Shown: piece by piece, positions 25,016 to 47,227 of the stretch
How the letters are laid out: the number at the start of each line of letters is the position of its first letter
Numbering within the stretch: the stretch's first letter is position 1
Assembly (NCBI GenBank): GCA_003851245.1
Contig: BHEP01000004.1
Location: forward strand, 1 to 64,000
Origin: Bacteroidales bacterium
Lineage (GTDB): Bacteria; Bacteroidota; Bacteroidia; Bacteroidales; Azobacteroidaceae
DNA length: 64,000 nucleotides
Reading direction: 5' to 3'
The notes under the pieces: generated by a model
The model's database searches: none
What the model was told of the DNA's origin: nothing
Seen by the model: the letters and a program-made list of their open reading frames with translations, nothing else
Program-made: the position numbers and the translations under genes

Positions 25016-25053
25016 GTAATATTATTCCAAATAGGTGTAATATAATGCCAAAT
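25016..25053 (+). promoter_or_regulatory. Pair of 17-bp direct repeats (putative HTCS operator, block A)
   Basis: Two copies, GTAATATTATTCCAAAT (25016-25032) and GTAATATAATGCCAAAT (25037-25053), agree at 15 of 17 positions with a period of exactly 21 bp, two helical turns. The same arrangement occurs upstream of the block B SusC gene (47190-47227). Distance from the end of the pair to the -7 box is 90 bp here and 88 bp there. Direct repeats are what AraC-type domains of hybrid regulators bind. Confidence 0.7.
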
Positions 25054-25142
25054 GCACTATCTATTTACAATAATGTCCTTTTTTGACAAGATATTACATC
25101 TTTATTTATATAGTAAATTAACATTTATAGACAAATATGGTA

Positions 25143-25150
25143 TACTTTTG
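25143..25150 (+). promoter_or_regulatory. -7 box of block A promoter (TACTTTTG)
   Basis: TACTTTTG fits TAnnTTTG. The sequence between it and the operator shares further blocks with the block B promoter, namely TACATCnTTATT (25095) and AATTAAC. No TTTG -33 box is seen, as expected for an activator-dependent promoter. Confidence 0.6.
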
Positions 25151-25216
25151 TATCTATATCCAATATTTTAAATACAAATTAATAAATACAAGTTAATAAT
25201 TACAAAATATTACAAC

Positions 25217-27736
25217 ATGAAAAAAATATTGATCTTACTAGCTCTATCCTGCCTCAGTATGGGTGCAAGCCTTGCTACAGATTTGTTTAAAACGACAAAA
25301 AAAATTGATCTTAGAGCTCCCTCAGTTCCCTTGATCACCTCCGACCCCTACCTCTCGATATGGTCGCCCTACAACAAACTAACAGAAGGCAATACCGAAC
25401 ACTGGACTGCCGCCGAACATCCATTGATTGGTGCTATAAGGGTAGATGGGCAAGTTTATCGCTTTATGGGCAAAGACAATATGGACTTGAAGCCAATAGC
25501 AGCAATGACTCATTTTGAACATTGGGAAGCATCCTATACCAATGTCAAACCCAGCGCTGCATGGTTTGAGCCAGATTTCGACGACAGCTCCTGGAAAAAA
25601 GGAGAGGCGGCTTTTGGTAGCGAGGGTATGAAAAGAATTAAAACTCCCTGGAAAGATGGCGATATATGGATAAGAAGAGAGATTGACCTGAGCACGGATA
25701 TATCCAAAGAAAGTCTTTTCCTAAAATACTCACACGACGATGAATTTGAGCTCTATCTCAATGGTGAAAAACTTATAGAAACTGGATACTCATGGAAAGA
25801 CGATGTAGTACTACAGCTCTCCGAACAAACAAAGAAGAACCTTCGCAAGGGAAAAAACGTAATTGCCGCCCATTGCGCCAACAAGGCTGGAGGTGCCTAT
25901 GTAGATTTTGGATTGTATAGCAAGGCCGAAGTAAACACCAACTTCAACAAAGAAGCCATACAAACTGCCCTCAACGTGATGCCCACCCAAACATATTATA
26001 CCTTCACTTGTGGAGCGGTAGAACTGGATCTTGTATTTACCTCTCCTCTATTGATGGACGATCTAGACCTCATATCTACGCCCATCTCCTACATATCATA
26101 TCGTGTGCGAGCCTTAGACAAAAAGGCACATGAGGTGCAGGTATACATACACACCAGCCCCGAACTTGCTGTTCACCAAACTACACAAGCCACGGTTTCT
26201 GAAACTATTGCTAAAAATGGAATGATGTATCTCAAAACGGGAACCATAGATCAGGCAATCACGGAGCGCATAGGCGACAATACCCGCATAGACTGGGGCT
26301 ATGCCTACTTGGCAAGCGACAAGGAAGGCAAGAAAAATCTTTGCCTAGGCAAGGCCGCTGATATAAAAGAATCCTTTATTGCCTCAGGAAAATTGCCGCG
26401 CAGCCAACAGTCCTACACCACTAGAGCTGGCATAGAATGGCCTATTATGGCTTATGTAGATAATCTTGGCATGGTGGATGGCGAGGGTAAGTCGGGCTAT
26501 CTTATGCTAGGGTATGATGATATTTATGCCATAGAATATTTTCATAAGAAAAAAATGGCCTATTGGAAACACAATGGGGCAATTGGTATTTTTGATGCCT
26601 TCGAAAGAGCCAAATCCAACTACCAATCAGTAATGAATCGCTGTAGAAGCTTTGACCTAGAGTTAATAAGCGAAGCGGAAAATGCTGGTGGAAAAGAATA
26701 TGCAGAAATATGCGCCCTCACATATCGCCAAACCATTGCAGCCCACAAGCTACTTACCGACGACGATGGCAATCTACTCTTCTTGTCCAAAGAAAACCAC
26801 AGCAATGGATGTATCAATACTGTTGATCTAACCTACCCCTCGGCTCCCTTGTTTTTGCTCTACAATACCGACTTGCTTAAGGGTATGCTTACCCCAATTT
26901 TCTACTACAGCGAAAGCGGAAGGTGGAATAAGCCCTTTCCAGCACATGACCTCGGCACATATCCTATTGCCAATGGACAACTATATGGAGGAGATATGCC
27001 CGTAGAAGAAGCGGGAAACATGATACTCGCCACAGCTGCAGCATCTATCATTGATGGAAATGCTGATTATGCAATGAAACACTGGAAAACCCTCTCTATA
27101 TGGGTAGAATACCTCGCGGAAAAAGGATTGGATCCGGAAAACCAACTATGTACCGATGACTTTGCAGGACACCTTGCTCACAATGCCAACCTCTCGGCTA
27201 AGGCTATAATGGCTATTGCGGCATATGGCGAAATGGCCAAAATGATGGGCATGGTAGAAACACACAAGCAATACAACAACTTGGCTAGGACGATGGCTAA
27301 GGAATGGGAGGCGATGGCTAAAGATGGGGATCATTACAAACTGGCTTTCGACAAAAGCGGATCGTGGAGCCAAAAATATAATATGGTATGGGATGATATT
27401 TTTGATTGGAATATATTCCCTTCACAAATCATTAAAACCGAAATCCCTTTCTACCTAAGCAAACAGAAAAAATATGGACTTCCCCTCGATTCAAGAATGG
27501 ATTATACCAAATCGGATTGGGTGATATGGACAGCTTGCATGGCCGACAATGACGAAACTTTTGCCAAATTTATTGCTCCTATATACAAGTATGCCAACGA
27601 AACCTCTTCGAGAGTGCCTATGAGCGATTGGCACGATACGAATACAGGCAATTCTATCAATTTCAAAGCCCGTTCGGTAGTAGGAGGGTACTATATGAAA
27701 ATGCTCAAAGAACGAGTGAAATCCCAGAGTTATTGA
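25217..27736 (+). CDS. Glutaminase-like protein (DUF4964/DUF5127/DUF4965/DUF1793 layout)
   Basis: The 839-residue protein has a signal peptide (MKKILILLALSCLSMGASLA). The segment VPLITSDPYLSIWSP is the DUF4964 start. A galactose-binding-like insert (WFEPDFDDSSWKKGEAAFG, IWIRREIDLS) is followed by DUF5127 and by the (alpha/alpha)-barrel region DUF4965/DUF1793 (WKTLSIWVEYLAEKGLDPENQLCTDDFAGH, NLSAKAIMAIAAYGEMAKMMG). Relatives include fungal glutaminase A, but in polysaccharide loci the activity is unproven and a glycosidase role is possible. It is the first gene of block A, directly behind the operator and promoter. Confidence 0.8.
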   Translation: MKKILILLALSCLSMGASLATDLFKTTKKIDLRAPSVPLITSDPYLSIWSPYNKLTEGNTEHWTAAEHPLIGAIRVDGQVYRFMGKDNMDLKPIAAMTHFEHWEASYTNVKPSAAWFEPDFDDSSWKKGEAAFGSEGMKRIKTPWKDGDIWIRREIDLSTDISKESLFLKYSHDDEFELYLNGEKLIETGYSWKDDVVLQLSEQTKKNLRKGKNVIAAHCANKAGGAYVDFGLYSKAEVNTNFNKEAIQTALNVMPTQTYYTFTCGAVELDLVFTSPLLMDDLDLISTPISYISYRVRALDKKAHEVQVYIHTSPELAVHQTTQATVSETIAKNGMMYLKTGTIDQAITERIGDNTRIDWGYAYLASDKEGKKNLCLGKAADIKESFIASGKLPRSQQSYTTRAGIEWPIMAYVDNLGMVDGEGKSGYLMLGYDDIYAIEYFHKKKMAYWKHNGAIGIFDAFERAKSNYQSVMNRCRSFDLELISEAENAGGKEYAEICALTYRQTIAAHKLLTDDDGNLLFLSKENHSNGCINTVDLTYPSAPLFLLYNTDLLKGMLTPIFYYSESGRWNKPFPAHDLGTYPIANGQLYGGDMPVEEAGNMILATAAASIIDGNADYAMKHWKTLSIWVEYLAEKGLDPENQLCTDDFAGHLAHNANLSAKAIMAIAAYGEMAKMMGMVETHKQYNNLARTMAKEWEAMAKDGDHYKLAFDKSGSWSQKYNMVWDDIFDWNIFPSQIIKTEIPFYLSKQKKYGLPLDSRMDYTKSDWVIWTACMADNDETFAKFIAPIYKYANETSSRVPMSDWHDTNTGNSINFKARSVVGGYYMKMLKERVKSQSY

Positions 27737-27796
27737 AAACCCCTAGAATAATTCTGTAACAAAACATTTTTTCTAATCTATAAAAATAAAAAACCA

Positions 27797-29185
27797 ATGA
27801 AGAAAGACTTTAAAAAGATCAAGCGGCAGGCATTGACTATTCTCTGCTGCGCCATCTCTGCATTTTTTGTCGCCTGCGACAGTGGTTCTACAACTGTAGA
27901 TATTGGCAAAGGACACGATGCGACCCACAATCCCTCTCAGCCTGTGACAGTGGTATCATTCGAGCCAGAGAGCGGCGGTGTAGGAGCCCAAATTCTGGTC
28001 TCGGGGTCTAATTTTGGAAGCGACACCTCTGCCATCAAAGTAATGATGGACGATGTTTATTTGAATGTTATACAATCCAACGGCAAGATCATTTATGCTA
28101 TTATCCCTGCCGGCCAGCCCTCCCCTAGCAATGAGGCTGGTGTCATTTCTGTGCATATAGGAAAAGGCAGTGACCTTAAAGAGGTAAGAGCCCCCGGATT
28201 ATTTAAGTATGACATTACTCCTTTTGTATCTACCTTGGCCGGATACATAGACGAGAAAGGAAACACGTCGGTAAAAGACGGACCCATCAACGAAGCCCAA
28301 TTTGAAGAGCCTCATTGGCTAACATTCGACCAGCACAAAAATCTATATATATTGGAAGAGGGCAGAGGCATGAGGTTTATAGACAAGGACCGCAGCGAGG
28401 TAACAACCAAATTTAGAACCTCCAGCGGTATTGATCGTGTAAGAACAATTTCATTTACAAACGACTATTCTAAAATGTATATCACCAACGATGATGGCGA
28501 CGAAAACTGGAATGGTATAGGCACTATCGAGCTTTCTGAGGAGAGCGATTTTACATTCTGGAAACGGGCTATCAACTCTAGGCAGTGCAATGGGGGAGAT
28601 GTGCACCCACAAGACAATAGCTACTTCTTTGGAAGCTATGAACAAGGGCAGGTATTTAAGTGGGATGGCAGGTCCAACCCCATATCAGCCAAAGAAAATT
28701 CCAAAGAACTCTTCAAGATACAAGACCGATCATGGGAGTTTAACATACAATTTCATCCAAGCGGCGATTTTGCATACATCGTAGTGATCAACAAACACTA
28801 CATTCTCAAATCTTACTACAACAGCGAAAGACAAGAACTGGAGCTGCCCGTGCTCTTTGCTGGCTACCCCGATCAAGCAGGCCATAGAGATGGAGTTGCT
28901 ACAGCTGCACGTTTTAACCAGCCCTACCAAGGAACTTTCGACAAAGAGGGCAATTTCTATGTCTGCGATAGAGATAACCACTGCATACGCAAAGTAACGC
29001 CCCAAGGAATTGTAAGCACTTTTGCTGGGCGACCACAGAACCATGGATACACCGATGGGACTCTCAGAGATGCCCAATTCGATCGTCCCAATGGCATTGT
29101 GTATGATACCGACAACAATGAGTTCTTTATTGCAGACCGTCAAAACAGACGTATACGCAAAATAAGCATGCCTAAAAACAATTAA
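27797..29185 (+). CDS. IPT/TIG and NHL-repeat lipoprotein
   Basis: The 462-residue protein carries a lipobox FVAC with Cys27. An IPT/TIG Ig-like domain (VVSFEPESGGVGAQILVSGSNFG) covers about residues 50-135, and NHL propeller repeats cover 140-460 (DGVATAARFNQPYQGTFDKEGNFYVCDRDNHCIRKVT, then a second such unit near the end). Such proteins sit at the cell surface next to SusCD and are thought to bind glycan. The stop overlaps the SusC start by one base (TAATG), so translation is coupled. Confidence 0.85.
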   Translation: MKKDFKKIKRQALTILCCAISAFFVACDSGSTTVDIGKGHDATHNPSQPVTVVSFEPESGGVGAQILVSGSNFGSDTSAIKVMMDDVYLNVIQSNGKIIYAIIPAGQPSPSNEAGVISVHIGKGSDLKEVRAPGLFKYDITPFVSTLAGYIDEKGNTSVKDGPINEAQFEEPHWLTFDQHKNLYILEEGRGMRFIDKDRSEVTTKFRTSSGIDRVRTISFTNDYSKMYITNDDGDENWNGIGTIELSEESDFTFWKRAINSRQCNGGDVHPQDNSYFFGSYEQGQVFKWDGRSNPISAKENSKELFKIQDRSWEFNIQFHPSGDFAYIVVINKHYILKSYYNSERQELELPVLFAGYPDQAGHRDGVATAARFNQPYQGTFDKEGNFYVCDRDNHCIRKVTPQGIVSTFAGRPQNHGYTDGTLRDAQFDRPNGIVYDTDNNEFFIADRQNRRIRKISMPKNN

Positions 29186-32100
29186 TGATGAAGAGACAAA
29201 TATATACTCTGCTACTCACATTGCTGCTATTTCCCTTGGGGATTTCAGCACAACAGACAGTCACACTTACTGGTATGGTCAATGACATAGACAACGAACC
29301 TCTCATAGGTGTATCCATTGCGGTGAAAGACCAAGTAAGTAGCGGCACCGTGACCGACATGGACGGAAAATTCTCAATTGTAGTACGCCCTTATAGTTCC
29401 CTCATATTTAGCTATGTAGGCTACAATAAGCAGGAAGTAAACATAGGCGACAAAACCACAATCAATGTGCGAATGGAAAGCGCTAGCATATTGGATGAGG
29501 TGGTAATTACGGCGGCTGGCACCCAGCGCAAAATATCCTCCACGGGAGCCATCACAAGCGTCGACATAAAGACCCTCAATGTATCTTCATCCAACCTCAC
29601 CAACGCCCTAGTTGGCAATGTGGCAGGGATAATTGCCGTGCAAGGATCGGGCGAGCCTGGAAGCAATAATTCCGAATTTTGGATACGTGGTATATCTACC
29701 TTTGGAGCCAATCAGAGCGCCCTAGTATTGGTCGATGGATTTGAGCGTAACTTCAATGAGATAAATGTTGAAGACATCGCCGAATTTTCCATCCTCAAAG
29801 ATGCCTCCGCAACAGCAATATATGGCTCTAAAGGAGCCAATGGCGTTGTTCTTATCACCACAAAAAGGGGAAATGCAGGGAAAATAAATATCAATGCAAA
29901 GGTAGAATATGGATACAATGCACGCACACGAACACCCGAGTTTGTAGATGGTATAGGCTATGCCAATATGGTAAATGAGGCATTGGTCACAAGAAACAGG
30001 GAGCCCCTCTACAGCCCTCAAGAAATTGATATTATAAGATACCAACTCGATCCCGACCTATATCCCAATGTAGATTGGATGGATCTTCTTCTTCGTGAGG
30101 GGGCAAGCACACGAAGAGCATCGCTCAACTTTGATGGAGGAGGTACTACGGCACGATATTTTGTGTCTGGAAGCTATGTCGATGAGGGTGGAATGTACAA
30201 GACCGACAAAATGATGAGCGACTACAATACAAACTCCAACCTCCAACGCTGGAACTATAGAACCAACTTTGATATGGATTTGACAAAAACCACCTTAATC
30301 AGTGTAGGTGTTTCTGGACACTTACAGAAGCACAACAAGGCTGGCTTGGGTCACGACATATGGCATTCACTAGTAGGGCAAACTCCCGTAGATATTCCAG
30401 TAATGTACTCCAATGGGAGAACGCCAAGCTCTGGCATAGGAAGCAGGACAAATCCATGGGTACTTGCCACACAAACGGGCTTTGTAGAAAACTGGGAAAA
30501 TATAGCGCAGATAAACGTAAGCATCAAACAAGACCTCAAGTTTATTGCTGAAGGTCTGAGATTTGAAGGGCGATTGGGCCTGGACTCTAAAAATACAAAC
30601 TATATAGGCCGCACCAAATGGCCAGAGCAGTATAATGTAGAAAGAAGGAGGGACTTAGAGGGTAATTTGGTAATGAAACGCATAGCTACCGAGCGATTTT
30701 TAGAGCAACAAACTGGGAGCAGTGGCGAACGCTTCTACAACATGGAGCTAGAAATGCACTACAATCGTGTATTTGCCGAAAAACATAGATTTGGAGCTCT
30801 ATTGAAGTCCTTTCAAAACGAGAAGACAGAAGTTATAGAAAAAGGTGACGAGAGCGAACTCCAATTCCTTATAAGGGGAATGCCCCGACGAAATCTCGGA
30901 ATGTCGGGACGCAGCACCTATGGATATATGGATCGCTACCTCCTAGAATTTAACTTCGGATACACAGGCTCTGAAAATTTCAAAAAGGGACATCAGTTCG
31001 GATTCTTTCCTGCCGTTTCTGTAGGATGGAACATTGCCGAAGAAGGTTTTGTTAAAAAAAGCCTCCCGTGGCTCTCTATGGCTAAGGTAAGGTATTCCTA
31101 CGGAGAGGTGGGCAACGAAAGGATAGATACACGATTTCCATACCTCACCCAAATTAACGAAAGGGGAGACTACAACTTTGCCGATATTGGACAAGACTAC
31201 ATAATTAATGGACTCCATCTTGCCACAGTTGCAGCCAATAGCCTCACTTGGGAGGTAGCTAAAAAACACAACCTAGGCTTCGACATCAACGTAAAAAATG
31301 GACTTTTTACAGCCACCGTAGATCTCTTCAAAGACACCCGCGAAGACATTTATATGCAACGCAAAAACCTTCCTGGCATGGTAGGTATCACCAGCCAGCC
31401 TTGGGCAAATGTAGGGAAGATGGAAAGCCAGGGCTTTGATGGAAGCCTTGCATTTAGCAAGAAAATAAGCGATGTGCAGCTAACCTTCCGTGGCAATATA
31501 ACCTATGCAAAAAATGAGGTAATAGAATTTGACGAAGAAACAAGTGCCCTACCCTATAGAATGACACAGGGATACCGACACCGACAGGTGAAAGGACTCG
31601 TCGCCCTAGGTCTCTTTGAAGACTACGACGATATACGAAACTCGCCCAAGCAAACCTTTGGCAACTACATGCCCGGCGACATCAAATACAAGGATGTTAA
31701 CGGCGATGGTGTAATCAACGACCTCGACATTGTGGCTATAGGAGCTACCGAAGTTCCCAGCCTTGTATACGGCCTAGGCCTATCATTGGTATGGACGGGC
31801 TTTGATTTCAATATCCATTTTCAGGGAGCTGGCAAATCATCCAAAATGATCAATGGGTCGAGTGTATACCCATTTGTTGACGGCTCTTGGGGCAATATAT
31901 TTACCGAAGTCGCTGCCGATGGCAATAGATGGATATCTAAAGAAATATCGGGAGACCCTGCTACCGAAAATCCCAATGCCAAATATCCCCGCTTAAGTAT
32001 GGGTGGGAACGACAACAATTACAGGGGGTCTACATTTTGGCTCAGAGATGGCAAATATATACGTCTCAAAACCCTAGAATTTGGCTACACCATTCCAAAA

Positions 32101-32268
32101 CGCATATTGGCAAAAGCTCATGCCTCTGGTGCTCGAGTGTTTTTTGTTGGCAACAACCTTGCACTGTGGGATAGCCTCAAGCTTTGGGATCCTGAATTAG
32201 ACACCTCCAATGGTCAGAAGTATCCTCTCAACAAGAGCCTCACCTTTGGACTTACATTGAATTTCTAA
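29185..32268 (+). CDS. SusC-like TonB-dependent outer-membrane transporter (block A)
   Basis: The 1027 residues comprise a signal peptide, a carboxypeptidase-regulatory-like domain (LTGMVNDIDNEPLIGVSIAV, DMDGKFSI), the plug (with the family hallmark EFSILKDASATAIYGSKGANG) and the 22-stranded barrel ending in LTFGLTLNF with the terminal aromatic residue. It imports glycan fragments together with the SusD protein that follows 29 bp downstream. The signal region MKRQIYTLLLTLLLFPLGISAQ supports the start. Confidence 0.95.
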   Translation: MMKRQIYTLLLTLLLFPLGISAQQTVTLTGMVNDIDNEPLIGVSIAVKDQVSSGTVTDMDGKFSIVVRPYSSLIFSYVGYNKQEVNIGDKTTINVRMESASILDEVVITAAGTQRKISSTGAITSVDIKTLNVSSSNLTNALVGNVAGIIAVQGSGEPGSNNSEFWIRGISTFGANQSALVLVDGFERNFNEINVEDIAEFSILKDASATAIYGSKGANGVVLITTKRGNAGKININAKVEYGYNARTRTPEFVDGIGYANMVNEALVTRNREPLYSPQEIDIIRYQLDPDLYPNVDWMDLLLREGASTRRASLNFDGGGTTARYFVSGSYVDEGGMYKTDKMMSDYNTNSNLQRWNYRTNFDMDLTKTTLISVGVSGHLQKHNKAGLGHDIWHSLVGQTPVDIPVMYSNGRTPSSGIGSRTNPWVLATQTGFVENWENIAQINVSIKQDLKFIAEGLRFEGRLGLDSKNTNYIGRTKWPEQYNVERRRDLEGNLVMKRIATERFLEQQTGSSGERFYNMELEMHYNRVFAEKHRFGALLKSFQNEKTEVIEKGDESELQFLIRGMPRRNLGMSGRSTYGYMDRYLLEFNFGYTGSENFKKGHQFGFFPAVSVGWNIAEEGFVKKSLPWLSMAKVRYSYGEVGNERIDTRFPYLTQINERGDYNFADIGQDYIINGLHLATVAANSLTWEVAKKHNLGFDINVKNGLFTATVDLFKDTREDIYMQRKNLPGMVGITSQPWANVGKMESQGFDGSLAFSKKISDVQLTFRGNITYAKNEVIEFDEETSALPYRMTQGYRHRQVKGLVALGLFEDYDDIRNSPKQTFGNYMPGDIKYKDVNGDGVINDLDIVAIGATEVPSLVYGLGLSLVWTGFDFNIHFQGAGKSSKMINGSSVYPFVDGSWGNIFTEVAADGNRWISKEISGDPATENPNAKYPRLSMGGNDNNYRGSTFWLRDGKYIRLKTLEFGYTIPKRILAKAHASGARVFFVGNNLALWDSLKLWDPELDTSNGQKYPLNKSLTFGLTLNF

Positions 32269-32297
32269 GAGGCAAACAAAAAAAATAAAAAAATAAT

Positions 32298-34319: not shown

Positions 34320-34363
34320 TTGCAATGAATTATAATATGAAATACATACTAAAAACATTCAAT

Positions 34364-35350: not shown

Positions 35351-35462
35351 CATTTCCGTTTGCATTAGCTTCTAAAAGGACTACAGACACCCACTAGGAG
35401 CTGTCGCCATTTCAGAACTTACTTTTATATGTATTATTCATTCATTATTATTCATTACAAGG

Positions 35463-36636: not shown

Positions 36637-36668
36637 TTTGGCAGTCTCAAAAAAAAGACCTACCTTTG
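36637..36668 (+). promoter_or_regulatory. Promoter of the thioredoxin-lipoprotein gene
   Basis: TTTG (36637-36640) and TACCTTTG (36661-36668) are spaced by 20 nt, a full consensus match. It separates this gene from the upstream saccharolytic operon. Confidence 0.7.
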
Positions 36669-36724: not shown

Positions 36725-37192
36725 ATGAAGAAAATAACATTATTTCTTGCAGTAATTTCACTTTTTCTCGTTGCTTGCAACAATTCATCAAGCCAGTCAG
36801 AGAACTCGGAAACAGCTGAAGGCAAAGAGGCACAATCCTCCAAGGTTATACACCTAACTAAGGCGGAGTTCCTTGAGAAGGTGGTGAGTTATGAGACAGA
36901 CTTCGATGAGTGGGAATACCTTGGCGATAAGCCTTGTATTCTTGATTTTTATGCCGACTGGTGTCCTCCCTGCAAAAAAATAGCTCCCATATTGGACGCA
37001 CTATCCAATGAATATGATGGACAAATATATATCTATAAAATAGATACCGACGAGGAGGGCGAATTGGCAGCTGCATTTGGTATTAAAAGCATACCTACAC
37101 TATATTTTATTCCTATGAAAGGTAATCCTACCCTTTCTGAAGGCGAACTTACCAAGTCAGAATTGAAAAAAAGGATAGAAGCTATTCTGTAA
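36725..37192 (+). CDS. Thioredoxin-like lipoprotein
   Basis: The 155-residue protein has the lipobox LVAC (MKKITLFLAVISLFLVACNN) and a Ser-rich spacer, followed by a thioredoxin fold with the active site DWCPPCKK near residues 78-85 and the cis-Pro SIPTLYF. It acts as an envelope disulfide oxidoreductase. The redox partner is unknown. It has its own promoter and a strong terminator, so it is a single-gene unit inserted between the two saccharolytic blocks. Confidence 0.88.
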   Translation: MKKITLFLAVISLFLVACNNSSSQSENSETAEGKEAQSSKVIHLTKAEFLEKVVSYETDFDEWEYLGDKPCILDFYADWCPPCKKIAPILDALSNEYDGQIYIYKIDTDEEGELAAAFGIKSIPTLYFIPMKGNPTLSEGELTKSELKKRIEAIL

Positions 37193-37213
37193 ATAAAGGA
37201 ATAAAAAATGATT

Positions 37214-37267
37214 AATGATCAATGGATAATTTTGCTTACGCATGTTTGCTATTATCCATTGATCATT
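37214..37267 (+). terminator. Strong terminator after the thioredoxin gene
   Basis: The arms 37214-37230 and 37251-37267 are perfectly complementary over 17 bp with a 20-nt loop, followed by a run of T. It is the clearest rho-independent terminator in the window. Confidence 0.85.
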
Positions 37268-37305
37268 TTTTTATTTAATACTGTATCTTATAAAACCCAT
37301 ACAAT

Positions 37306-40300
37306 ATGAAGAGCAAAATAATCCTTATAGGCATCGTCATAAGTATTTCTACGATGTTAGCATTTAGCATTATCAATAAAAATAGTACTAAAGATAATCC
37401 CTTAAGCTATGAAATGTTGTTGGATTGGGTCGCAGAGTTTGAAAAAGAGGCATTGTCCGCCTCGTCACAGAAGGTAGCACAAGAGATATACTCAAAGGCA
37501 AGCAGGGAGCAAAACGGACCTCAGGCATGCATGGCCTTGCTTCGTAAGATGGAATTTGAAAGTGCAATAGACAGCGAAAACCAGATACAAGTGCTAGCAC
37601 AGATCGAAGAGCATACTGCCGAAACCACCGATATCATAGAAAAATCTGTGCTGCATTCGCTTACAGCCAGAATATATGCCAATTACTACCTTAGCAAGCA
37701 ATACGAGATAGACCAAAGGACAAATATTGACGACATAATTCCCAAGGATATAAGAGAGTGGTCGTCCAATATGTTTACCAACAAAATAATACGAGAAATC
37801 GAGAGCTCGCTACATGCCAAGGACTTACTAGCCAATGCCAGCACCAAAGAATACGAAATGATAATAGACAAGGGAGAAAGCTCAGCAGAGATGCAACTCT
37901 CCCTATTGGATTTTCTGGCACATGAGTCAATAGAAACTCTTTCGTCAATAGAAGCAAGCAAGCAATATAGCGGTACTCAGTCGGAAATATCCGCCATCCA
38001 GAACCTTAAAATTAGCATATACCAACAATTACTGCAATTCAGATCGGAGATAGACAATATACCCGCCTTGGTAAATATTTCCTTAGAAAGGCTACAATAC
38101 ACATACGAAATATCAAAAGACCAAGACCGCAGAGATATTTACCTAAGTGCGCTTGGTGAAATGGAAGGGAAATATGAGAACAATGAAATATGTGTAGAAA
38201 TATACAATCAGCAAGCTAAAATATACCTTGAGCAAGAAGACAAAAAAGAAGCTTACCAAATTTGTATAAAGGGCATAGAACGCTTTCCTGACTATAAACG
38301 TATAAATATACTGCATGCTACCATAGCAAGCATCACTCAGCCAGCAGCGAATGTAGAGTCTAAGAGCGCAGTGTATCCGGGGAAGTCCTTAGAGCTACGA
38401 TTTTCATACACCAACATAGACTCCCTCCGCCTAGAAATATATAGGATAGAGAATGTATTGATGAAGTCAAAATCGGGCTGGGGCCGCGACACATATTTTG
38501 AAGAATATGGCTCCTTAGTGAGCTCTGAGACCATAAAGCTCATAAACCTCTTTCCATACCTTGATCAAGACAGCTGCATAAAACTTCAAATACTGCCACT
38601 TGGCAACTACGAATATGTGTTTCGACATATATCTAGGGGCAATTTGACCGAGGACACTACTGCTATGGATCCACTGGCAACAGGAAGCTTCTCTGTAAGT
38701 CGATTGGCAACACAATCGAGAGGGTATACCAAAGAGATAGAAATACTGGTAGTAGACCGAATGACCGGAAAACCAATTAAGGGAGCCTTGGTAGATTTTT
38801 ATGAGACAAATTACATAGCAGGACAAAAGCGAATACAGGAAATACAATCGTCGGCAAAAAGCGATAAATATGGTTTGGCAAAATATATGCCCACAGAAAA
38901 GCGGGTAGATTTTTATAGACTTAGCTACAAAGACGATAAGCCCCTAATTCTTTCTTCGGCTCCATGGCTTAGCGGAGCAAGAATGGCAGAAAAAACACAG
39001 CAGTCAATACAGCTGCTCACCGACAGGGGTATTTATCGCCCCGGGCAAATAGTGTACGTAAAGGGTATTGCCTCTAAAAAAGACAATGGGCAGGAAATAG
39101 TAGCAGCAGAAATAGCACTTACCCTGGTTTTGCGCGATGCCAACAATACCGAATTGCAGCGTCAGCAATTGCAGACTAACGATTTTGGCTCGTTTTACTG
39201 CGATTTTATCCTTCCTCCTAGTTCTATGAATGGCATATTTACCATTGCTATTGAAGGAGAAAATAGCCTTTGCCGAATTAGGGTAGAAGAATACAAACGC
39301 CCCAAATTTTATATCTCCTTGCTGCCCATTGAAGGAACTTATACTTTTGGTGATAAGCTAAATGTCAGGGGCGAAGCAGGCTCTTTTTCTGGCATCAATT
39401 TGCAGCATTCATCTATTAAATACCGCATATTCAAACAGTCCCCCTGGTATTGGCGTGCATGGAGAGCTCCTCAGAGAGAGATTGCTCAAGGAGAAGTTAA
39501 AACCGACGAAAAGGGGCAGTTTGAGATAAGTTTTATTCCAGAGAAGGGCATTGGAAATGACAAATACCGCACTAATTTGCATTCCTATATGCTGCAAGTG
39601 TCTATAACCGATGCCAGTGGCGAAACACAGCAAGAGGATAAGTACATCAGGGTAGACAGCTCAGCCTTTGCCTTAGAGATAAAGGATATTGACCAGCGTA
39701 TTGACAAAAACGCACACAATACAATACTTATAAAGACCAATAATTTAGACGATAATCCAGTAGAAGTGAGTGGAGATTATGAAATTTACAGACTACAAAC
39801 ACCCTCTTTGCTGGAGGAGGGCGCTCCAACAAAGGATCTAAAAACATCAGAAAGAGTATTTGCTGCTCCCTTTGTAGGCAATAAAGAACTTGAACTCGCA
39901 AGCCTTACGAAGCTTCCTTCGGGAATGTACCGATTTATTGGCACAGGCACAGACAGCAAAGGAAGGGCAGCGAGCACAAGTAAAGATTTTATACTCTACG
40001 ACCAAAAAGACAAGAAACCCCCAGTGCCCTTATATTTTTGGATGCTTCCGCTAAAAACAGAAGTGCCCGTGGGGGGAGATGCGGAAATTGTTTTTGGATC
40101 TTCGGCAAAGGGCGCATATATACTTTGCGAGATATTTAAAGGCTACGAAAGACTATCCATACAGCGATTTGTGCTGAGCAATAAATGCAAGTTGCTAAAA
40201 ATACCATACGAAAAATCCTATGGCGATCAGGTGGGCGTAATGTTTAGCATGGTAAAAGACGAAAAAATATTCTCCAAGAAAACCGTCATATTGCGGGCAC

Positions 40301-43119
40301 TGCCTCCCGAGAAGCTCTACCTAAACCTCGACGTGTTTAGAGATAGGCTGATGCCTGGTCAAAAAGAAGAGTGGACGCTATCGGTGAAAGACCAAGACAA
40401 TAAAGCTGTTGATGCCGAAGTCCTTGCCAGCATGTACGACTTTTCATTAGACGCAATATCTCCATTCGACTTCCGCTTTGGACGTATAGCCAAGGCATAT
40501 ATGCCAAGCCCATACGCTGTGGGAGGAAAAGAGTTTGCCACCCAAGACGCGTTTATTCACTACCCCTACAAGGATTATATTGAGAAATTGCTGCTCTTTG
40601 ATAGATTCAATCTCTTTGGCCCAAAAGAGGTATACACCGAGAGTTTAAAATTTGCAGCTGCCAATGGCCGAGCTCCCGAGCTTGCTGCTATGGAGGGTTC
40701 GGTGTCAGACAATGCTACTGTTGTTGCTCCAGCCCTTGCTAAAGGCAGTGATACTACGTCGCCACAGATACGCCGCAATTTCAATGAGACAGCATTTTTC
40801 TATCCCCAGCTGCGAACCAATGCCCTTGGCGAAACCCTCATCTCATTTGTCGTGCCCGAGAGTAATACTACATGGAAATTTCAGGCGCTGGCGCATACCA
40901 AGGACATGAAATATGGGCAAATCGAAGCCAAGGCAATTAGCCAAAAGAAACTTATGCTTGCTCCCAACATCCCTCGTTTTGTGAGGCAGGGCGATAAAAC
41001 AAGCCTCGTCACCAATATATACAACCTTTCTGACCAGCTGATGGAAGGTAGGGTGAGCCTATCTTTTGCAGATCCTGCAACAGGCAATAGCATTGCAATG
41101 CCCGAGTTTGTCAATGCCTCACAAAGCTTTAGTATAGAAGCCGGCAGCACCACTACTGCCGAATGGAGATTCGATATACCCGAAAGCATTGACCTGCTAA
41201 CCTGCAAGCTTGTAGCACAAACAGAGGGATTTAGCGATGGAGAACAGCATATGATACCCATTCTTCCTAGGCGCATTCTCATCACCGAGAGCCTTCCTCT
41301 TTTTGTAAGTGGCAGACAAACGAAAGAATTTCCCTTAAACTACTTATTCAAAAATGAATCTCTTACTACCATTCCCTACAAGCTAAGTCTTGAATATGCT
41401 TCAAACCCTACTTGGTATGCCGTGCAGGCCTTACCCAAGATAAGTGCGCCCCAAAGCAACAATGCCATTGATTGGTTTGCTGCCTATTATGCCAATGTAT
41501 TGGCAAGTTCTATAGCCAATACTACTCCCAGATTGAAAGAAATAGTTGAAGCATGGACACAGCAAGGAGGCACAAAGCAAGACCTGGTGTCGAACTTAGA
41601 AAAAAATCAGGAACTAAAAGTTGTGCTCTTGGAAGAAACTCCCTGGCTCATGGAAGCCAAAAATGAAACCGAGCAGCAGCAATCTTTGGCACTGCTATTC
41701 GACACAAATCGTTCGGCAATGCTTGGACAGCAATCTTTAGACAAACTAAGGGAACTTCAAAATCCCGATGGTGGATGGTCCTGGTTTAAGGGCATGCCCT
41801 CCTCGCAATCTATTACGCAATGGATTCTCTATGGCATGGCTCATTTGGTAGAACTTCAAGCTATCTCCTACCCGCAGGATGTTAGGGAAATGCAAATGAG
41901 TGCACTGGCATTTATTGACCGCCGTTTTGCCGATAATTTCCTTGTTTTCAAGGAGCAAATGCCCCAATGGAAATCTACGAAGCAGGTTTCTACCCCTATA
42001 TTTGAATATCTCTTCGTAAGGAGCTATTATCAAGACATCCCATTGGGAGAGGCTAGGGAAGCCAGGCAGTTCTATCACCAATTGGCCCAACAATATTGGG
42101 CAGAAGTGATGATCAGGAATGCGTCTACAAAGAATCCTCAGCTCTATACCGCTGCCATCAATGCCATGCTAATGCAGAGATCGGGGGAGAGAGAGACGGC
42201 TCAAAAAATCATCAAATCGCTAGGAGAGCATGCCACGCGCAGCAATGAAATGGGCATGTATTGGGCAAACAATCAGGCCTCGCCATTTATGTTTCAGGAT
42301 GCCGTTTGTACTCACACCATTATTATGCAAGCCTTTGAAGAAGTGGGCTGTAGTGAGCAAGATATGAACCAGATGAAGCAATGGCTGCTATTTCAAAAAC
42401 AAACACAGGCCTGGGGCAATACGCCTGCTACCGTCAATGCCGTTTATGCCTTGCTTAAAGCGGGTAGCACGAACTGGCTTGCCAGTGAAGGAGGTGTAGA
42501 TATTGAGCTAGGCAAAACAAAGATAAACTCCCAATCTAGGGCTGCAGGAACAGGCTATTTTAAGCAGGTTTTAGATGCCAAGACCATTGGCCATTCTATC
42601 GACAAGCTGAATATTACTTCCCAAAGCGATGCCCCTATCTGGGGAGCTCTATATTGGCAATACTATCAAGACGTAGACAAAGTTAGCGGCTCCAAAACAG
42701 GACTGCTAGTAGATAAAGCGATTTTTATCGAAGGTACCGGCGACAAGTCCAAAGTATTGCAAGCTCCCAGTGCTAGCAATCCCATAAGGGTGGGCGACAA
42801 AATTGTGGTGCGCCTCACCGTCCGCAGCAATAGAGACCTGCAGTATGTGGCCCTCAAAGATATGCACTCGGCCTGCATGGAGCCTGCCGAACAGCTCTCT
42901 GGATACAAATGGAGGCAGTCGGTAGGGTATTATCAGACCAGCAAGGATGCTTCTACCAGCTTTTATTTTGAAAATCTTCCTCGGGGAGCTTACGTCTTTG
43001 AATACTCATTGTTTGCCAGTAGAGCTGGCGAGTACAGTGCAGGAATCACCAGTGTTCAGTGCCTCTATGCCCCACAATATAGTGCGAATAGCGAGGGTAG
43101 GAGGGTGGTAGTTCATTAG
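37306..43119 (+). CDS. Alpha-2-macroglobulin-like protein without thioester
   Basis: The protein has 1937 residues with an N-terminal signal or anchor (ILIGIVISISTMLAFSII). An alpha-helical region covers roughly the first 350 residues. The MG2-type segment SIQLLTDRGIYRPGQIVYVKGIA lies near residue 570, the A2M core (FYPQLRTNALGETLISFVVPESNTTWKFQ) near 1165, and the terpenoid-cyclase-like helical domain, with LQNPDGGWSWF, near 1485. The thioester motif CxEQ is absent: the region where it should fall reads SAPQSNNAIDWFAAYY. Bacterial members trap proteases in the periplasm, and Bacteroidetes have many thioester-less forms. The usual partner pbpC is not present. The gene ends 7 bp from the convergent HTCS gene. 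Confidence 0.85.
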   Translation: MKSKIILIGIVISISTMLAFSIINKNSTKDNPLSYEMLLDWVAEFEKEALSASSQKVAQEIYSKASREQNGPQACMALLRKMEFESAIDSENQIQVLAQIEEHTAETTDIIEKSVLHSLTARIYANYYLSKQYEIDQRTNIDDIIPKDIREWSSNMFTNKIIREIESSLHAKDLLANASTKEYEMIIDKGESSAEMQLSLLDFLAHESIETLSSIEASKQYSGTQSEISAIQNLKISIYQQLLQFRSEIDNIPALVNISLERLQYTYEISKDQDRRDIYLSALGEMEGKYENNEICVEIYNQQAKIYLEQEDKKEAYQICIKGIERFPDYKRINILHATIASITQPAANVESKSAVYPGKSLELRFSYTNIDSLRLEIYRIENVLMKSKSGWGRDTYFEEYGSLVSSETIKLINLFPYLDQDSCIKLQILPLGNYEYVFRHISRGNLTEDTTAMDPLATGSFSVSRLATQSRGYTKEIEILVVDRMTGKPIKGALVDFYETNYIAGQKRIQEIQSSAKSDKYGLAKYMPTEKRVDFYRLSYKDDKPLILSSAPWLSGARMAEKTQQSIQLLTDRGIYRPGQIVYVKGIASKKDNGQEIVAAEIALTLVLRDANNTELQRQQLQTNDFGSFYCDFILPPSSMNGIFTIAIEGENSLCRIRVEEYKRPKFYISLLPIEGTYTFGDKLNVRGEAGSFSGINLQHSSIKYRIFKQSPWYWRAWRAPQREIAQGEVKTDEKGQFEISFIPEKGIGNDKYRTNLHSYMLQVSITDASGETQQEDKYIRVDSSAFALEIKDIDQRIDKNAHNTILIKTNNLDDNPVEVSGDYEIYRLQTPSLLEEGAPTKDLKTSERVFAAPFVGNKELELASLTKLPSGMYRFIGTGTDSKGRAASTSKDFILYDQKDKKPPVPLYFWMLPLKTEVPVGGDAEIVFGSSAKGAYILCEIFKGYERLSIQRFVLSNKCKLLKIPYEKSYGDQVGVMFSMVKDEKIFSKKTVILRALPPEKLYLNLDVFRDRLMPGQKEEWTLSVKDQDNKAVDAEVLASMYDFSLDAISPFDFRFGRIAKAYMPSPYAVGGKEFATQDAFIHYPYKDYIEKLLLFDRFNLFGPKEVYTESLKFAAANGRAPELAAMEGSVSDNATVVAPALAKGSDTTSPQIRRNFNETAFFYPQLRTNALGETLISFVVPESNTTWKFQALAHTKDMKYGQIEAKAISQKKLMLAPNIPRFVRQGDKTSLVTNIYNLSDQLMEGRVSLSFADPATGNSIAMPEFVNASQSFSIEAGSTTTAEWRFDIPESIDLLTCKLVAQTEGFSDGEQHMIPILPRRILITESLPLFVSGRQTKEFPLNYLFKNESLTTIPYKLSLEYASNPTWYAVQALPKISAPQSNNAIDWFAAYYANVLASSIANTTPRLKEIVEAWTQQGGTKQDLVSNLEKNQELKVVLLEETPWLMEAKNETEQQQSLALLFDTNRSAMLGQQSLDKLRELQNPDGGWSWFKGMPSSQSITQWILYGMAHLVELQAISYPQDVREMQMSALAFIDRRFADNFLVFKEQMPQWKSTKQVSTPIFEYLFVRSYYQDIPLGEAREARQFYHQLAQQYWAEVMIRNASTKNPQLYTAAINAMLMQRSGERETAQKIIKSLGEHATRSNEMGMYWANNQASPFMFQDAVCTHTIIMQAFEEVGCSEQDMNQMKQWLLFQKQTQAWGNTPATVNAVYALLKAGSTNWLASEGGVDIELGKTKINSQSRAAGTGYFKQVLDAKTIGHSIDKLNITSQSDAPIWGALYWQYYQDVDKVSGSKTGLLVDKAIFIEGTGDKSKVLQAPSASNPIRVGDKIVVRLTVRSNRDLQYVALKDMHSACMEPAEQLSGYKWRQSVGYYQTSKDASTSFYFENLPRGAYVFEYSLFASRAGEYSAGITSVQCLYAPQYSANSEGRRVVVH

Positions 43120-43126
43120 TCCTATT

Positions 43127-46100
43127 CTACTCTTTCTCTTGCTTCACATAGTCTTTGGGGCTCATGCCAAACTGCTTTTTGAAGCTTTTAGAAAAATATG
43201 AAGAAGAACTAAATCCCACAATATGGCAAACTTCATTGATACGATAAGAACCTTCAGCGAGCAATTCCGCAGCCTTTTTGAGGCGTATTAGTGAGATGAA
43301 ATCGCTGGGGGTGAGCTCCGAGATTCCTCGTATCTTGCGGTGAAGGCTAGAACGGCTCATTCCCAAATCTTCTGCAAGCATCTCTATCTTAAAATGCTTG
43401 TCCGCTAAATTTTTGTGAATAATATCGCTTACTCTAAACAAGAAATTCTCATCGGCATTGGTAAGAGCAATACTGTCTATAGCCTGTTGAGGCAGATTCA
43501 TAAAAGCTTTTTTAACAGTGAGCCTATTTGCCAATAAATTTGAGATTTGAGCCAGCAAATGATCCATTGAAAAGGGCTTGTCTACATAGGCATCGGCCCC
43601 TGCACTGAGTCCCTCAATACGAGGCTCCAAGCCAACTTTGGCCGTCAGCAAGATAATGGGGATATGGCTAAAGTTTACGTTAGATTTAATTTCGCTACAA
43701 AGCTGCAGTCCATCCATCAAGGGCATCATTACGTCCGAAATAACCAGATCTACTATTTCCTTTTGCAGGGTTTCCAGGGCCTCCAGCCCATTTTTTGCCT
43801 TTCTCACGCAATAGATATCCTTCAATCTATTATATATAAATTGTCGCATTTCGTTGTCGTCCTCCACCAGTAATATTGTAAGCTTAGAATCTTGTCCGCT
43901 GTCTTCAAAATAAGAGCTGTCGGATTCTTGCTTTAAGCTATCGGATTCTTTTAGTGCCACCACATTTTCTTGTTTTATTGGGAGTTTTAGCAGAAATACA
44001 TTTGCATGCTCCAAGCTCTCATCCATTTTCAAAGAGCCATGATGCAGTTCGGCAAGAGAGCGTGCCAGGGGCAGGCCAAGCCCAGTTCCTGATTTTATTC
44101 TATTTCCCTCAGTTTCTTCAAGTTGATAAAAAGGTTCAAAGATCTTTTCCTTTTCGCTATTCTTTATCAAGTTGCCATCACTAGAAATGCGAATAAGAAA
44201 CTCATTGCTATTTTCTATTTCTATAAAGAGAGTCAATAGAATCTCGGACTTAGCATATTTTAAGGCATTATTAAAAAGGTTGCTCAATATCTTAGTGAGA
44301 GCCTCTTGATCAACATCGGCAAAAAAGCTGTCCTGGGGAATTTCTATGGTCATATTCAAGCCTCTTCTCATGGCACTGGGTTTGAATCGGCTATGTGTTT
44401 CCTTAATCAATCGGGAAATATCTGTTTTCACATAATTTAGTCTAAAACCTTCGATTTCGGTCTTTCTAAAATCTAGCAACTGATTGCTTAAATCAAGCAA
44501 TCTATTGGTGTTGCGTTCAATAATTTGCAGGTGCTCTTTTTGTTCTTCTACATCCAATTGCTCTTGTAGAATATGCTCCAAGGGACCTTTTATAAGCGTT
44601 AGGGGAGTTCGTATCTCATGGGCAATATTGGTAAAAAAACTTATTTTAGCATTGTAGAGTTCGCGCTCTTTTTCATTCTCAAATTGCTCTAGTCGGTCTT
44701 TATTTTTTCTTTCCATACGCCTTCTGTATGTGCTAATCAAGAAGACTACAATAGACAATGTAGCAATAAGATAGGTCATATACGCAATGCCTGTTTGGAA
44801 AAAAGGAGGACGAATCACCACAAACACATCCCTACTATTTTCGTTCCATAGTCCATCACTATTACTCGCCTTCACCCTAAAAGTGTATTTGCCTGGAGGC
44901 AGGTTGGAATAAGTTACCTTTTGTTTCTGCGCCATTGTATTCCATTCTTTTTCAAAACCTTGGAGTATATATTGGTATTTATTTTTGGTGGGTACAGCAA
45001 AACTTAATGCTGCAAACGCGAAGCTAAAAGACGATTGCTTATAGTTTAGCTCAATGCTATCTGTATAGGTAATGGATTGCTTAAGGGGAGAGTTCTCTGT
45101 GCCAACTTCCACCTCCTTATTTAAAAGATAAAAATCGGTAATCACCACGGGAGGTATATATCTATTTTCAACAAAAGTAGATGGGTCGAATGAAATAAAT
45201 CCATTGAGGCAGCCAAAATAAAGTCGCCCATCAGCAGTTTTTATTCCCGATTTATAGTTGAATTGATCGCCAAGAAGACCATTGTTTGTAGTGAAAATCT
45301 TAAGCTCCTTATTCTTAGGGTTGAAACGGATCAATCCATTATTGCTGGTCATCCAGAGAAGGCCAGCCTTATCCTCAAGTATTTTGTATATAATATTGCT
45401 CGGCAGACCATCCTCGGTAGTAAAAGACGTAAAAGTTTCGTCCTTTGCATGATATTGAGATATACCTCCGCCCTCAGTAGCGAACCACAAGAGATTATTG
45501 CTATCTTCAAAAATAGAAATTATCTTGTCTTGCGCCAAGCTTGTAGAATCCTTTGCGTTGTGCCTAAAACTCTTCCATTCTGTGGTGCGCGGATTATATC
45601 TAAAAAGCCCACTTCCAAAACTGGCAAACCAAAGGAGCCCATCTTGCGACTGAAATATGTCATATATGAAGCTGTTTCCTATGAAATCTACTTTTGTAAA
45701 ATTATCCTGTTGCCGATTATAAAGAGACAGGCCTCCCGTAGTACCTACCCATATATTGTTGGAAATATCTTTGTAAAGGGCAAAGATATTTTTATCGCTT
45801 AGCGAAAGGCTATCATCAGTTTTATCGTAATGCCTGATTACCCTTTGCGTTTTCATATCCATGACATCCAATCCGTGCATAAAAGTGCCAATCCACAAGT
45901 TATTGCCATCTACCATTAGCCCATGAATATTGTGGTACGAAATATCTCCTGGCCTTCCCAAGGGAGAAAAGTTCTTGGCAAGGCCTGTCGATGGAGAGTA
46001 ATAATTAAGTCCCTCATCCTCTGTGCCTATCCACAAAGCTCCATGTGTATCTTGCTGAAATTCCCTAATTCTTTTTCCTTTAATCATACTCGACTTATTG

Positions 46101-47134
46101 CGAGGGTAGTGTCTTGAAAATGCACTGTTTTGAGGAGGATAATAGTTGAGTCCTCCAAAATAGCTGCCTGCCCAAATTCCTCCTTCTCTATCCTTGTAGA
46201 GTGAATATACAGCATTGTCCGACAGAGAATGTGAATCATATTGATCATGAACAATATGCGTATAGCTACCATTTTTTGTGTTGTAGACATAAATTCCCGA
46301 CTCGCTACTTATCCAAAGTTCCTTGTCGTCTACTCTTATAATTGACCTAACAAATAAGGACTGCATCTCCTCATCCTGCACCAGCGGACTCACTTCTCCG
46401 TCTATAGCGCTCAATTTTTGAACTCCCTTGTCGGCCGATCCAATAAGTAGATTGTTGTAGCTATCTTGATATAAAAGGCTTATATCCTGCGAAAGCATAT
46501 CTTTATTAAGCCCTCTAGCAAGGTAGGCATCAAATGCCCCGGTCTTTTCATTGAATAGGCACAAGCCTCCCTTGTTTGTGCCAAGCCAAATTTTATTTTC
46601 CCTATCAAAACAAATACTTCTAGCATTAAACTCCGAAGGAATGGGATGAAAAAAAAGCTCTTTACTACCAATATTGTATGAAAAAACTCCCTTCCAATCG
46701 GCAGCAAACCAAAGATTTCCTTCGGCATCCGATTTTATATCTTTCACAGATTGGGTAATTTCATGGCCCTCCCTTGTTTTTTTATAGAAAGAAGTCAAGC
46801 TCTCATCCTTTGGATCATAAATGGCAAGACCCTCTTCGGTTCCTATCCATATATTTCCCTCAATGTCCTCATATAAGGACGAGATAAAGTTATTCCTCAG
46901 GCTTCTTTCGTTTCCTATTTCATTCCTAAATATTTTAAAAGAATATCCATCATAACGACCTATACCATCTTTTGTGCCAAACCACATAAACCCTTGCTTG
47001 TCTTGAAGGATACAATAAACGGTATTGTTAGGCAGGCCACTTTCAACTCCAAAGCGAACAAAATGATTGTTAATTGCCTTGAGCGAACAACAAGAACAAG
47101 ACAAGAACAAAACAATAATAAAGATATTTCTCAT
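43127..47134 (-). CDS. Hybrid two-component system regulator (HTCS)
   Basis: The 1335-residue protein combines sensor and regulator. It has a signal peptide, then about fourteen two-component propeller repeats (residues 30-690, typified by MWFGTKDGIGRYDGYSF) and a Y_Y_Y domain (about 715-775). A transmembrane helix lies near 780-803. HisKA follows with the phospho-His near 840 (IAHEIRTPLTL), then HATPase (LSNLFNNALKYA, GTGLGLPLARS), a receiver with DVMMPLMDG near 1140, and an AraC-type HTH at the C-terminus (MLAEDLGMSRSSLHRKI, VGFSSSSYFSKSF). It binds a glycan fragment in the periplasm and activates its locus. It is divergent from the block B SusC gene, and the paired repeats lie 55 bp from its start. 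Confidence 0.95.
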   Translation of the reverse strand: MRNIFIIVLFLSCSCCSLKAINNHFVRFGVESGLPNNTVYCILQDKQGFMWFGTKDGIGRYDGYSFKIFRNEIGNERSLRNNFISSLYEDIEGNIWIGTEEGLAIYDPKDESLTSFYKKTREGHEITQSVKDIKSDAEGNLWFAADWKGVFSYNIGSKELFFHPIPSEFNARSICFDRENKIWLGTNKGGLCLFNEKTGAFDAYLARGLNKDMLSQDISLLYQDSYNNLLIGSADKGVQKLSAIDGEVSPLVQDEEMQSLFVRSIIRVDDKELWISSESGIYVYNTKNGSYTHIVHDQYDSHSLSDNAVYSLYKDREGGIWAGSYFGGLNYYPPQNSAFSRHYPRNKSSMIKGKRIREFQQDTHGALWIGTEDEGLNYYSPSTGLAKNFSPLGRPGDISYHNIHGLMVDGNNLWIGTFMHGLDVMDMKTQRVIRHYDKTDDSLSLSDKNIFALYKDISNNIWVGTTGGLSLYNRQQDNFTKVDFIGNSFIYDIFQSQDGLLWFASFGSGLFRYNPRTTEWKSFRHNAKDSTSLAQDKIISIFEDSNNLLWFATEGGGISQYHAKDETFTSFTTEDGLPSNIIYKILEDKAGLLWMTSNNGLIRFNPKNKELKIFTTNNGLLGDQFNYKSGIKTADGRLYFGCLNGFISFDPSTFVENRYIPPVVITDFYLLNKEVEVGTENSPLKQSITYTDSIELNYKQSSFSFAFAALSFAVPTKNKYQYILQGFEKEWNTMAQKQKVTYSNLPPGKYTFRVKASNSDGLWNENSRDVFVVIRPPFFQTGIAYMTYLIATLSIVVFLISTYRRRMERKNKDRLEQFENEKERELYNAKISFFTNIAHEIRTPLTLIKGPLEHILQEQLDVEEQKEHLQIIERNTNRLLDLSNQLLDFRKTEIEGFRLNYVKTDISRLIKETHSRFKPSAMRRGLNMTIEIPQDSFFADVDQEALTKILSNLFNNALKYAKSEILLTLFIEIENSNEFLIRISSDGNLIKNSEKEKIFEPFYQLEETEGNRIKSGTGLGLPLARSLAELHHGSLKMDESLEHANVFLLKLPIKQENVVALKESDSLKQESDSSYFEDSGQDSKLTILLVEDDNEMRQFIYNRLKDIYCVRKAKNGLEALETLQKEIVDLVISDVMMPLMDGLQLCSEIKSNVNFSHIPIILLTAKVGLEPRIEGLSAGADAYVDKPFSMDHLLAQISNLLANRLTVKKAFMNLPQQAIDSIALTNADENFLFRVSDIIHKNLADKHFKIEMLAEDLGMSRSSLHRKIRGISELTPSDFISLIRLKKAAELLAEGSYRINEVCHIVGFSSSSYFSKSFKKQFGMSPKDYVKQEKE

Positions 47135-47168
47135 ATTTTGTTGGCCTTAATAAAAAAATAAAGGCATA

Positions 47169-47176
47169 CAAAGGTA
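47169..47176 (-). promoter_or_regulatory. -7 box of the HTCS gene (TACCTTTG)
   Basis: On the minus strand TACCTTTG fits the consensus, 35 bp before the HTCS start. The first operator repeat lies 14 bp upstream, over the -33 region, which suggests autoregulation. Confidence 0.5.
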
Positions 47177-47189
47177 ATAATTGAAAATG

Positions 47190-47227
47190 GTAATATTATG
47201 TCAAATACATGTAATATCGTGCCAAAG
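47190..47227 (+). promoter_or_regulatory. Pair of 17-bp direct repeats (putative HTCS operator, block B)
   Basis: GTAATATTATGTCAAAT (47190-47206) and GTAATATCGTGCCAAAG (47211-47227) have a period of 21 bp, as upstream of block A. The four copies give the consensus GTAATATnnTGCCAAAT. The pair lies between the divergent HTCS and SusC genes. Confidence 0.7.

What the first reader, a model, noticed from the sequence alone, without database searches (positions are those of the whole stretch)
25016..47227. Identical paired direct repeats upstream of both saccharolytic blocks: a two-block regulon under one HTCS
Seen: GTAATATnnTGCCAAAT-like units occur twice at 25016-25053 and twice at 47190-47227, with a 21-bp period both times, and lie 90 and 88 bp from identical TACTTTTG boxes. 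Further blocks (TACATCnTTATT, AATTAAC) are collinear. Known: HTCS AraC domains bind direct repeats. Inferred: the single HTCS at 43127-47134 controls GH76-containing block A and GH92/GH43-containing block B as one programme, although they are 22 kb apart and separated by unrelated genes.
Basis: partly seen in the sequence, partly recalled or inferred. Interest (0 to 1): 0.8.

Follow-up and report, generated by a model that had tools for sequence, protein, structure and literature searches.

The report
Shared sugar-sensor switch for two operons
Two sugar-digestion gene blocks 22 kb apart carry the same rare control element, found nowhere else in this bacterium's held genome, so one sugar sensor probably switches both on together; that is a known style of control, but the element has an extra reversed third copy that I did not find described.

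Summary
16-bp units (GTAATATnnTGYCAAA) form tandem pairs with an exact 21-bp period at 25016-25052 and 47190-47226, 90 and 88 bp before identical TACTTTTG -7 boxes. The pair occurs exactly twice in the held 2.94-Mb genome. The interpretation, one HTCS driving both blocks, is well supported but unproven. The same element lies beside the orthologous HTCS of another species (59% identity overall, 73% in the DNA-binding domain). Other HTCS DNA-binding domains of this genome are only 32-37% identical. Genes of both blocks cluster around HTCS orthologues elsewhere. The architecture (16+5+16 bp direct repeat, period 21, distant operons in one regulon) is the published one for Bacteroides HTCSs (Ravcheev 2013), so this is a new member of a known kind. 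Across 96 HTCS-linked promoters, direct pairs end about 69 or about 88 bp before the -7 box; A and B belong to the second class. Whether the inverted unit is general is suggested, not shown.

The parts
25016..25031 (+). Direct unit 1 of operator A, GTAATATTATTCCAAA
25037..25052 (+). Direct unit 2 of operator A, GTAATATAATGCCAAA (period 21)
25082..25097 (-). Inverted third unit of operator A, GTAATATCTTGTCAAA; 45 bp before the -7 box
25116..25122 (+). AATTAAC at the -33 position of promoter A, 20 bp before the -7 box
   Evidence: Bacteroidetes promoter type from established knowledge
25143..25150 (+). TACTTTTG, -7 box (TAnnTTTG type) of block A
25217..36569 (+). Block A: GtaA-like six-hairpin protein, NHL/TIG protein, SusC, SusD, BT_3987/DUF4973-type lipoprotein, GH76
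36725..43119 (+). Genes between the blocks: thioredoxin (own TACCTTTG box at 36661) and alpha-2-macroglobulin-like protein (TAATTTTG at 37227); probably separate from block A
   Evidence: separate promoters inferred
43127..47134 (-). HTCS: propeller sensor, Y_Y_Y, HisKA, HATPase, receiver, AraC-type DNA-binding domain
47169..47176 (-). TACCTTTG, probable -7 box of the HTCS gene itself, 13 bp from direct unit 1 of operator B
   Evidence: role inferred
47190..47205 (+). Direct unit 1 of operator B, GTAATATTATGTCAAA
47211..47226 (+). Direct unit 2 of operator B, GTAATATCGTGCCAAA
47255..47270 (-). Inverted third unit of operator B, GTATTTTTGAGTCAAA (3 mismatches); 44 bp before the -7 box
47289..47295 (+). 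AATTAAC at the -33 position of promoter B, 19 bp before the -7 box
47315..47322 (+). TACTTTTG, -7 box of block B
47403..63027 (+). Block B: SusC, SusD, DUF3823, GH127, GH2, three GH43, GH92

Best explanation
The two elements are operators of the HTCS at 43127-47134. On binding an oligosaccharide in the periplasm the HTCS phosphorylates its receiver domain, frees its AraC-type domain, and occupies the tandem 16-bp units on one face of the DNA two helical turns apart. It probably also occupies the inverted unit nearer the promoter. This activates the weak TAnnTTTG promoters of block A and block B together. Shown: the elements, their uniqueness in the genome, their fixed geometry, their conservation beside the orthologous HTCS, and the clustering of both blocks' genes around HTCS orthologues. 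Inferred: binding, activation, and use of the inverted unit by the same protein.
For: Two genome-wide hits only; the unit is found nowhere else without mismatch. Similarity between A and B runs from unit 1 to the -7 box, while 5' leaders match at shuffle level. The nearest HTCS orthologue (G029, 59%; DBD 73%) has units at 109, 88 and 44 bp from its box, against 109/88/44 in B and 111/90/45 in A. Plebeiobacterium sediminum (L104; HTCS 52%, DBD 64%) has two such promoters, one on each side of its HTCS. The grid recurs in 5 promoters at total mismatch 10 or less; 0 of 54 shifted grids give any. Published HTCS sites are 21-bp-period direct repeats and HTCS_Man sites are 16+5+16 bp, with distant operons in some regulons (PMC3878776). 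Purified HTCS response-regulator parts bind susCD promoters carrying such predicted sites (PMC11253607). HTCS orthologues adjoin GtaA plus GH127 plus SusC_B in G005 and G007, and GtaA plus GH127 in G151 and G333.
Against: No binding or expression data. HTCS orthologues at about 40-45% identity (G005, G007) show no clear direct pair of this sequence, so the site type is limited to a narrow clade. G039 (DBD 65%) has no such element upstream of its HTCS. In other genomes block A-type loci occur without the HTCS on the contigs held (short contigs). Another HTCS of this genome could in principle contribute.
Confidence: 0.82

Rival explanations
1. Operator A is bound by a different, paralogous HTCS, or by several, and the two blocks are only partly co-regulated.
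For: The genome has at least five HTCSs, and related HTCSs can share similar motifs (PMC3878776). A degenerate period-22 pair lies downstream of the C37 HTCS.
Against: DNA-binding domains of the other four are only 32-37% identical to this one, whereas A and B units match 14/16 and share the whole grid. No other HTCS gene lies in the window.
Confidence: 0.1
2. The similarity is residual homology: one promoter was copied to the other block by duplication, and the copy is no longer, or only fortuitously, regulated.
For: The stretch between unit 2 and the inverted unit is also somewhat similar (18 matches against 11 in shuffles), so promoter transfer is a plausible origin.
Against: Each block's SusC and SusD has its own distinct set of orthologues, leaders do not match beyond shuffles, and the functional positions are conserved across species. 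A copied promoter would in any case carry the same operator.
Confidence: 0.05
3. The repeats are a chance or general AT-rich promoter feature not bound by an HTCS.
For: The region is AT-rich and TAnnTTTG boxes are common (110 in the window).
Against: Only two sites in the genome, alignment far above shuffles, phylogenetic conservation.
Confidence: 0.03

Closest known systems
HTCS_Man-type operators of Bacteroides thetaiotaomicron (BT2628, BT3302, BT3786; Ravcheev et al. 2013, PMC3878776)
   Same: Direct repeat of two 16-bp sites with a 5-bp spacer (period 21) upstream of susC-type operons; AraC-type HTCS nearby.
   Different: I could not compare the base sequences (logos and supplements not available). 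The inverted third unit is not mentioned in the passages I read. The gene set here mixes GH127/GH43 with GH76/GH92.
HTCS_Hep (BT4663) and HTCS_Rgu-1 regulons (PMC3878776)
   Same: One HTCS-type site upstream of several operons, including one away from the main locus (BT4675; BT4187-85).
   Different: Different substrates and units (12+9 bp for Rgu-1).
BT4124 and BT4663 response-regulator parts (mBio 2024, PMC11253607)
   Same: Receiver plus AraC-type DNA-binding domain; DNA binding to susCD promoters shown by EMSA.
   Different: Other proteins; no such experiment exists for this one.

Membership tests
AraC-type hybrid two-component system (HTCS) | Propeller sensor, Y_Y_Y, histidine kinase, receiver and AraC HTH in one chain | tested here: met
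   All Pfam domains above cut-off in 43127-47134
HTCS operator (Ravcheev 2013 type) | Direct repeat of two conserved sites with about 21-bp period upstream of a susC-type operon | tested here: met
   literature; period 21 also stands out across 96 HTCS-linked boxes
HTCS operator (Ravcheev 2013 type) | Conserved in orthologous loci (phylogenetic footprint) | tested here: met
   G029 and L104 promoters; absent upstream of G039's HTCS
HTCS operator (Ravcheev 2013 type) | Bound by the cognate HTCS DNA-binding domain | not testable with these tools
   Needs EMSA or footprinting
HTCS regulon spanning separate operons | Same operator at each operon and nowhere unrelated | tested here: met
   Exactly two sites in the genome
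HTCS regulon spanning separate operons | Co-induction lost in an HTCS mutant | not testable with these tools
   Needs RNA-seq
HTCS_Man (alpha-mannan) subgroup | HTCS orthologous to BT2628/BT3302/BT3786, same unit sequence | not tested
   Those sequences and logos were not fetched

The most novel reading that the evidence does not exclude
HTCS operators are tripartite: two direct 21-bp-period half-sites plus one inverted half-site held 44-45 bp from the -7 box. The direct pair sits either next to the inverted one or two helical turns further out, so the activator may bridge or loop DNA, and 'direct repeat' is an incomplete description of the whole class.
Probability: 0.35. Interest if true: 0.55.

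Novelty: new member of a known kind. Interest (0 to 1): 0.38.

Why it matters
HTCSs are a major class of regulators of glycan use in Bacteroidetes, and PULs are usually assigned by proximity. Here sequence shows a shared operator linking a block that would be annotated as regulator-less to an HTCS about 20 kb away, so its inducing glycan should be one that both enzyme sets act on. The inverted third unit and the two-position spacing rule give a testable promoter grammar for predicting other such links.

Tried and rejected
The single-unit pattern with 3 mismatches is uninformative in the window (14 found, 12 expected). The eight other 1-mismatch units in the genome were read and show no period-21 partner; some lie inside coding sequence. 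HTCS orthologues at 40-45% identity did not give the same unit, so no wide consensus could be built. A fully general inverted unit was tested three ways: box-aligned dyads (best axis 64, the predicted one, but 12 of 92 control windows reach the windowed value), consensus matching (no clear peak), and inverted copies versus shuffles (about 5-10 promoters against 1-2 expected at 31-47 bp, but heterogeneous on inspection). I therefore call it suggestive only. NCBIfam gave no name for the GtaA-like or GH76 proteins, and PDB no relative of the GtaA-like protein. Papers on an inverted HTCS half-site: none found in the held library.

Full report
WHAT IS THERE. The claimed units are present exactly where stated. 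Operator A: GTAATATTATTCCAAA (25016-25031) and GTAATATAATGCCAAA (25037-25052). Operator B: GTAATATTATGTCAAA (47190-47205) and GTAATATCGTGCCAAA (47211-47226). Both pairs have a period of 21 bp (16-bp unit plus 5-bp spacer). Both end 88-90 bp before TACTTTTG, which fits the Bacteroidetes -7 consensus TAnnTTTG, and AATTAAC sits 19-20 bp before that box, at the -33 position. A-versus-B alignment scores 60; the maximum in 2000 dinucleotide shuffles is 40. Outside the operator-promoter stretch, the 5' leaders match no better than shuffles (41 against 39).

UNIQUENESS. In the window's own genome (2.94 Mb, 99.7% complete, 118 contigs) the tandem pattern with up to 3 mismatches hits exactly these two places, with no reversed-pattern control hit. 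The unit GTAATATNNTGYCAAA without mismatch has four hits, all in the two promoters. Eight further 1-mismatch units show no period-21 partner; one of them has a degenerate period-22 partner.

A THIRD, INVERTED UNIT. One of the four exact hits is on the other strand: 25082-25097 reads GTAATATCTTGTCAAA. The equivalent place in B (47255-47270) is GTATTTTTGAGTCAAA, 3 mismatches. Distances from unit end to -7 box are 111/90 direct and 45 inverted in A, and 109/88 and 44 in B. In the nearest HTCS orthologue (G029, 59% identity), in the gap between HTCS and its divergent susC, they are 109/88 and 44. In Plebeiobacterium sediminum (HTCS 52%) the two promoters flanking the HTCS have direct units at 90/69 with the inverted one at 45, and a direct unit at 68 with the inverted one at 44. 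Scanning 2530 distinct TAnnTTTG boxes in all fetched DNA, five promoters reach a total of 10 mismatches or fewer on this grid, against none in 54 shifted control grids. The unit pattern was derived from A and B, so the independent evidence is the other three promoters. The inverted unit is thus fixed relative to the promoter, while the direct pair stands in one of two registers about 20 bp (two turns) apart.

GENERAL GRAMMAR. Over 184 non-redundant regions next to HTCS genes, with 96 boxes, 16-bp direct repeats show a strong preference for period 21 (203 counts against 15-48 for periods 18-20 and 22-24). They peak at 67-71 bp and again at 86-91 bp before the box. This reproduces, in other species, the 21-bp average reported for Bacteroides HTCS sites (PMC3878776), and places A and B in the further class. 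An inverted unit is suggested more widely but not proven.

WHICH REGULATOR. The only HTCS gene in the window is at 43127-47134, with all domains of the class. The genome has at least four more HTCSs, but their DNA-binding domains are 32-37% identical to this one, against 73% for G029 and 64% for P. sediminum, the species that share the operator. At operator B, the probable -7 box of the HTCS gene (TACCTTTG, minus strand, 47169-47176) lies 13 bp from unit 1, so its -33 region overlaps unit 1; negative autoregulation is possible (inference).

GENE CONTEXT. Block A: GtaA-like, NHL/TIG, SusC, SusD, BT_3987/DUF4973-type lipoprotein, GH76. Block B: SusC, SusD, DUF3823, GH127, GH2, three GH43, GH92. 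In G005 and G007, relatives of the same family, the HTCS orthologue is flanked by GH127, by GtaA (the first gene of block A) and then by SusC_B (with SusD_B and DUF3823 in G005; G007 also has a GH43); in G151 and G333 by GtaA and GH127. In Proteiniphilum (L147) SusD_A and DUF4973 relatives lie with two GH43s and the HTCS. G043 keeps the block A order GtaA-NHL-SusC-SusD-DUF4973. Genes of the two blocks are thus drawn to the same regulator in other genomes. The thioredoxin and A2M genes between the blocks have TAnnTTTG boxes of their own upstream (36661, 37227) and are probably not part of the programme (inference).

MECHANISM. Most likely (0.82): ligand-bound, phosphorylated HTCS occupies the direct pair as two same-facing DNA-binding domains, and probably the inverted unit, and activates both promoters together. 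Shown: sequence, uniqueness, geometry, conservation, gene association. Inferred: binding, activation, ligand. For related HTCSs, DNA binding of the response-regulator part to susCD promoters has been shown (PMC11253607). The ligand cannot be fixed: one GH43 (58686-59726) is nearest to endo-1,5-alpha-L-arabinanases and the GH127 to beta-L-arabinofuranosidases, while GH76 and GH92 act on alpha-mannans by family.

NOVELTY. The two-operon HTCS regulon and the 16+5+16 architecture are known kinds; this is a new member. The inverted third unit and the two-register rule were not found in the papers I could search, a library that lacks most subscription journals; they are the part worth a specialist's time.

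Noticed in passing
window 57125-57560: Between GH2 and the first GH43 lies a small gene starting MKSFINYYFLLG whose frame breaks in a run of nine T (57164-57172) and continues in the next frame as a lipoprotein-like sequence (LTACEDDKKE...). It has its own TATCTTTG box at 57089. Either a homopolymer slip that could act as an on/off switch, or an assembly error.
   Followed up: partly
window 15821-15900 (-): Match to Rfam RF04319, BTncRNA_FopS (family of paralogous sRNAs of Bacteroidetes), 59 bits against a 56-bit cut-off.
   Followed up: no
window 47169-47176 (-) and 24952-24959 (-): The divergent gene on the other side of each operator (the HTCS at B, the DUF2339 membrane protein at A) has a TACCTTTG box; at B its -33 region would overlap direct unit 1, hinting at autoregulation.
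   Followed up: no
L079 13207-13244 (own genome, contig C37): A degenerate pair of similar units with period 22, followed by TATATTTG, downstream of another HTCS gene; no long open frame follows on that strand within about 1.4 kb.
   Followed up: partly
L073 10486-10544 (G015:C44): Another direct-direct-inverted arrangement of similar units (GTAATCGTATTCCAAA, GTAATATTATCCCAAT, then TTTGAAAAAAAAATAC), about 44-45 bp before TTACTTTG, upstream of a 712-aa gene; its regulator was not identified.
   Followed up: partly
window 25217-27736 and relatives L069, L093, L095, L229, L231, L234: The GtaA-like six-hairpin protein recurs in this kind of locus in several species beside HTCS, GH127 or SusC/SusD genes, yet has no PDB relative by sequence; it may be a glycosidase rather than a glutaminase.
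   Followed up: no
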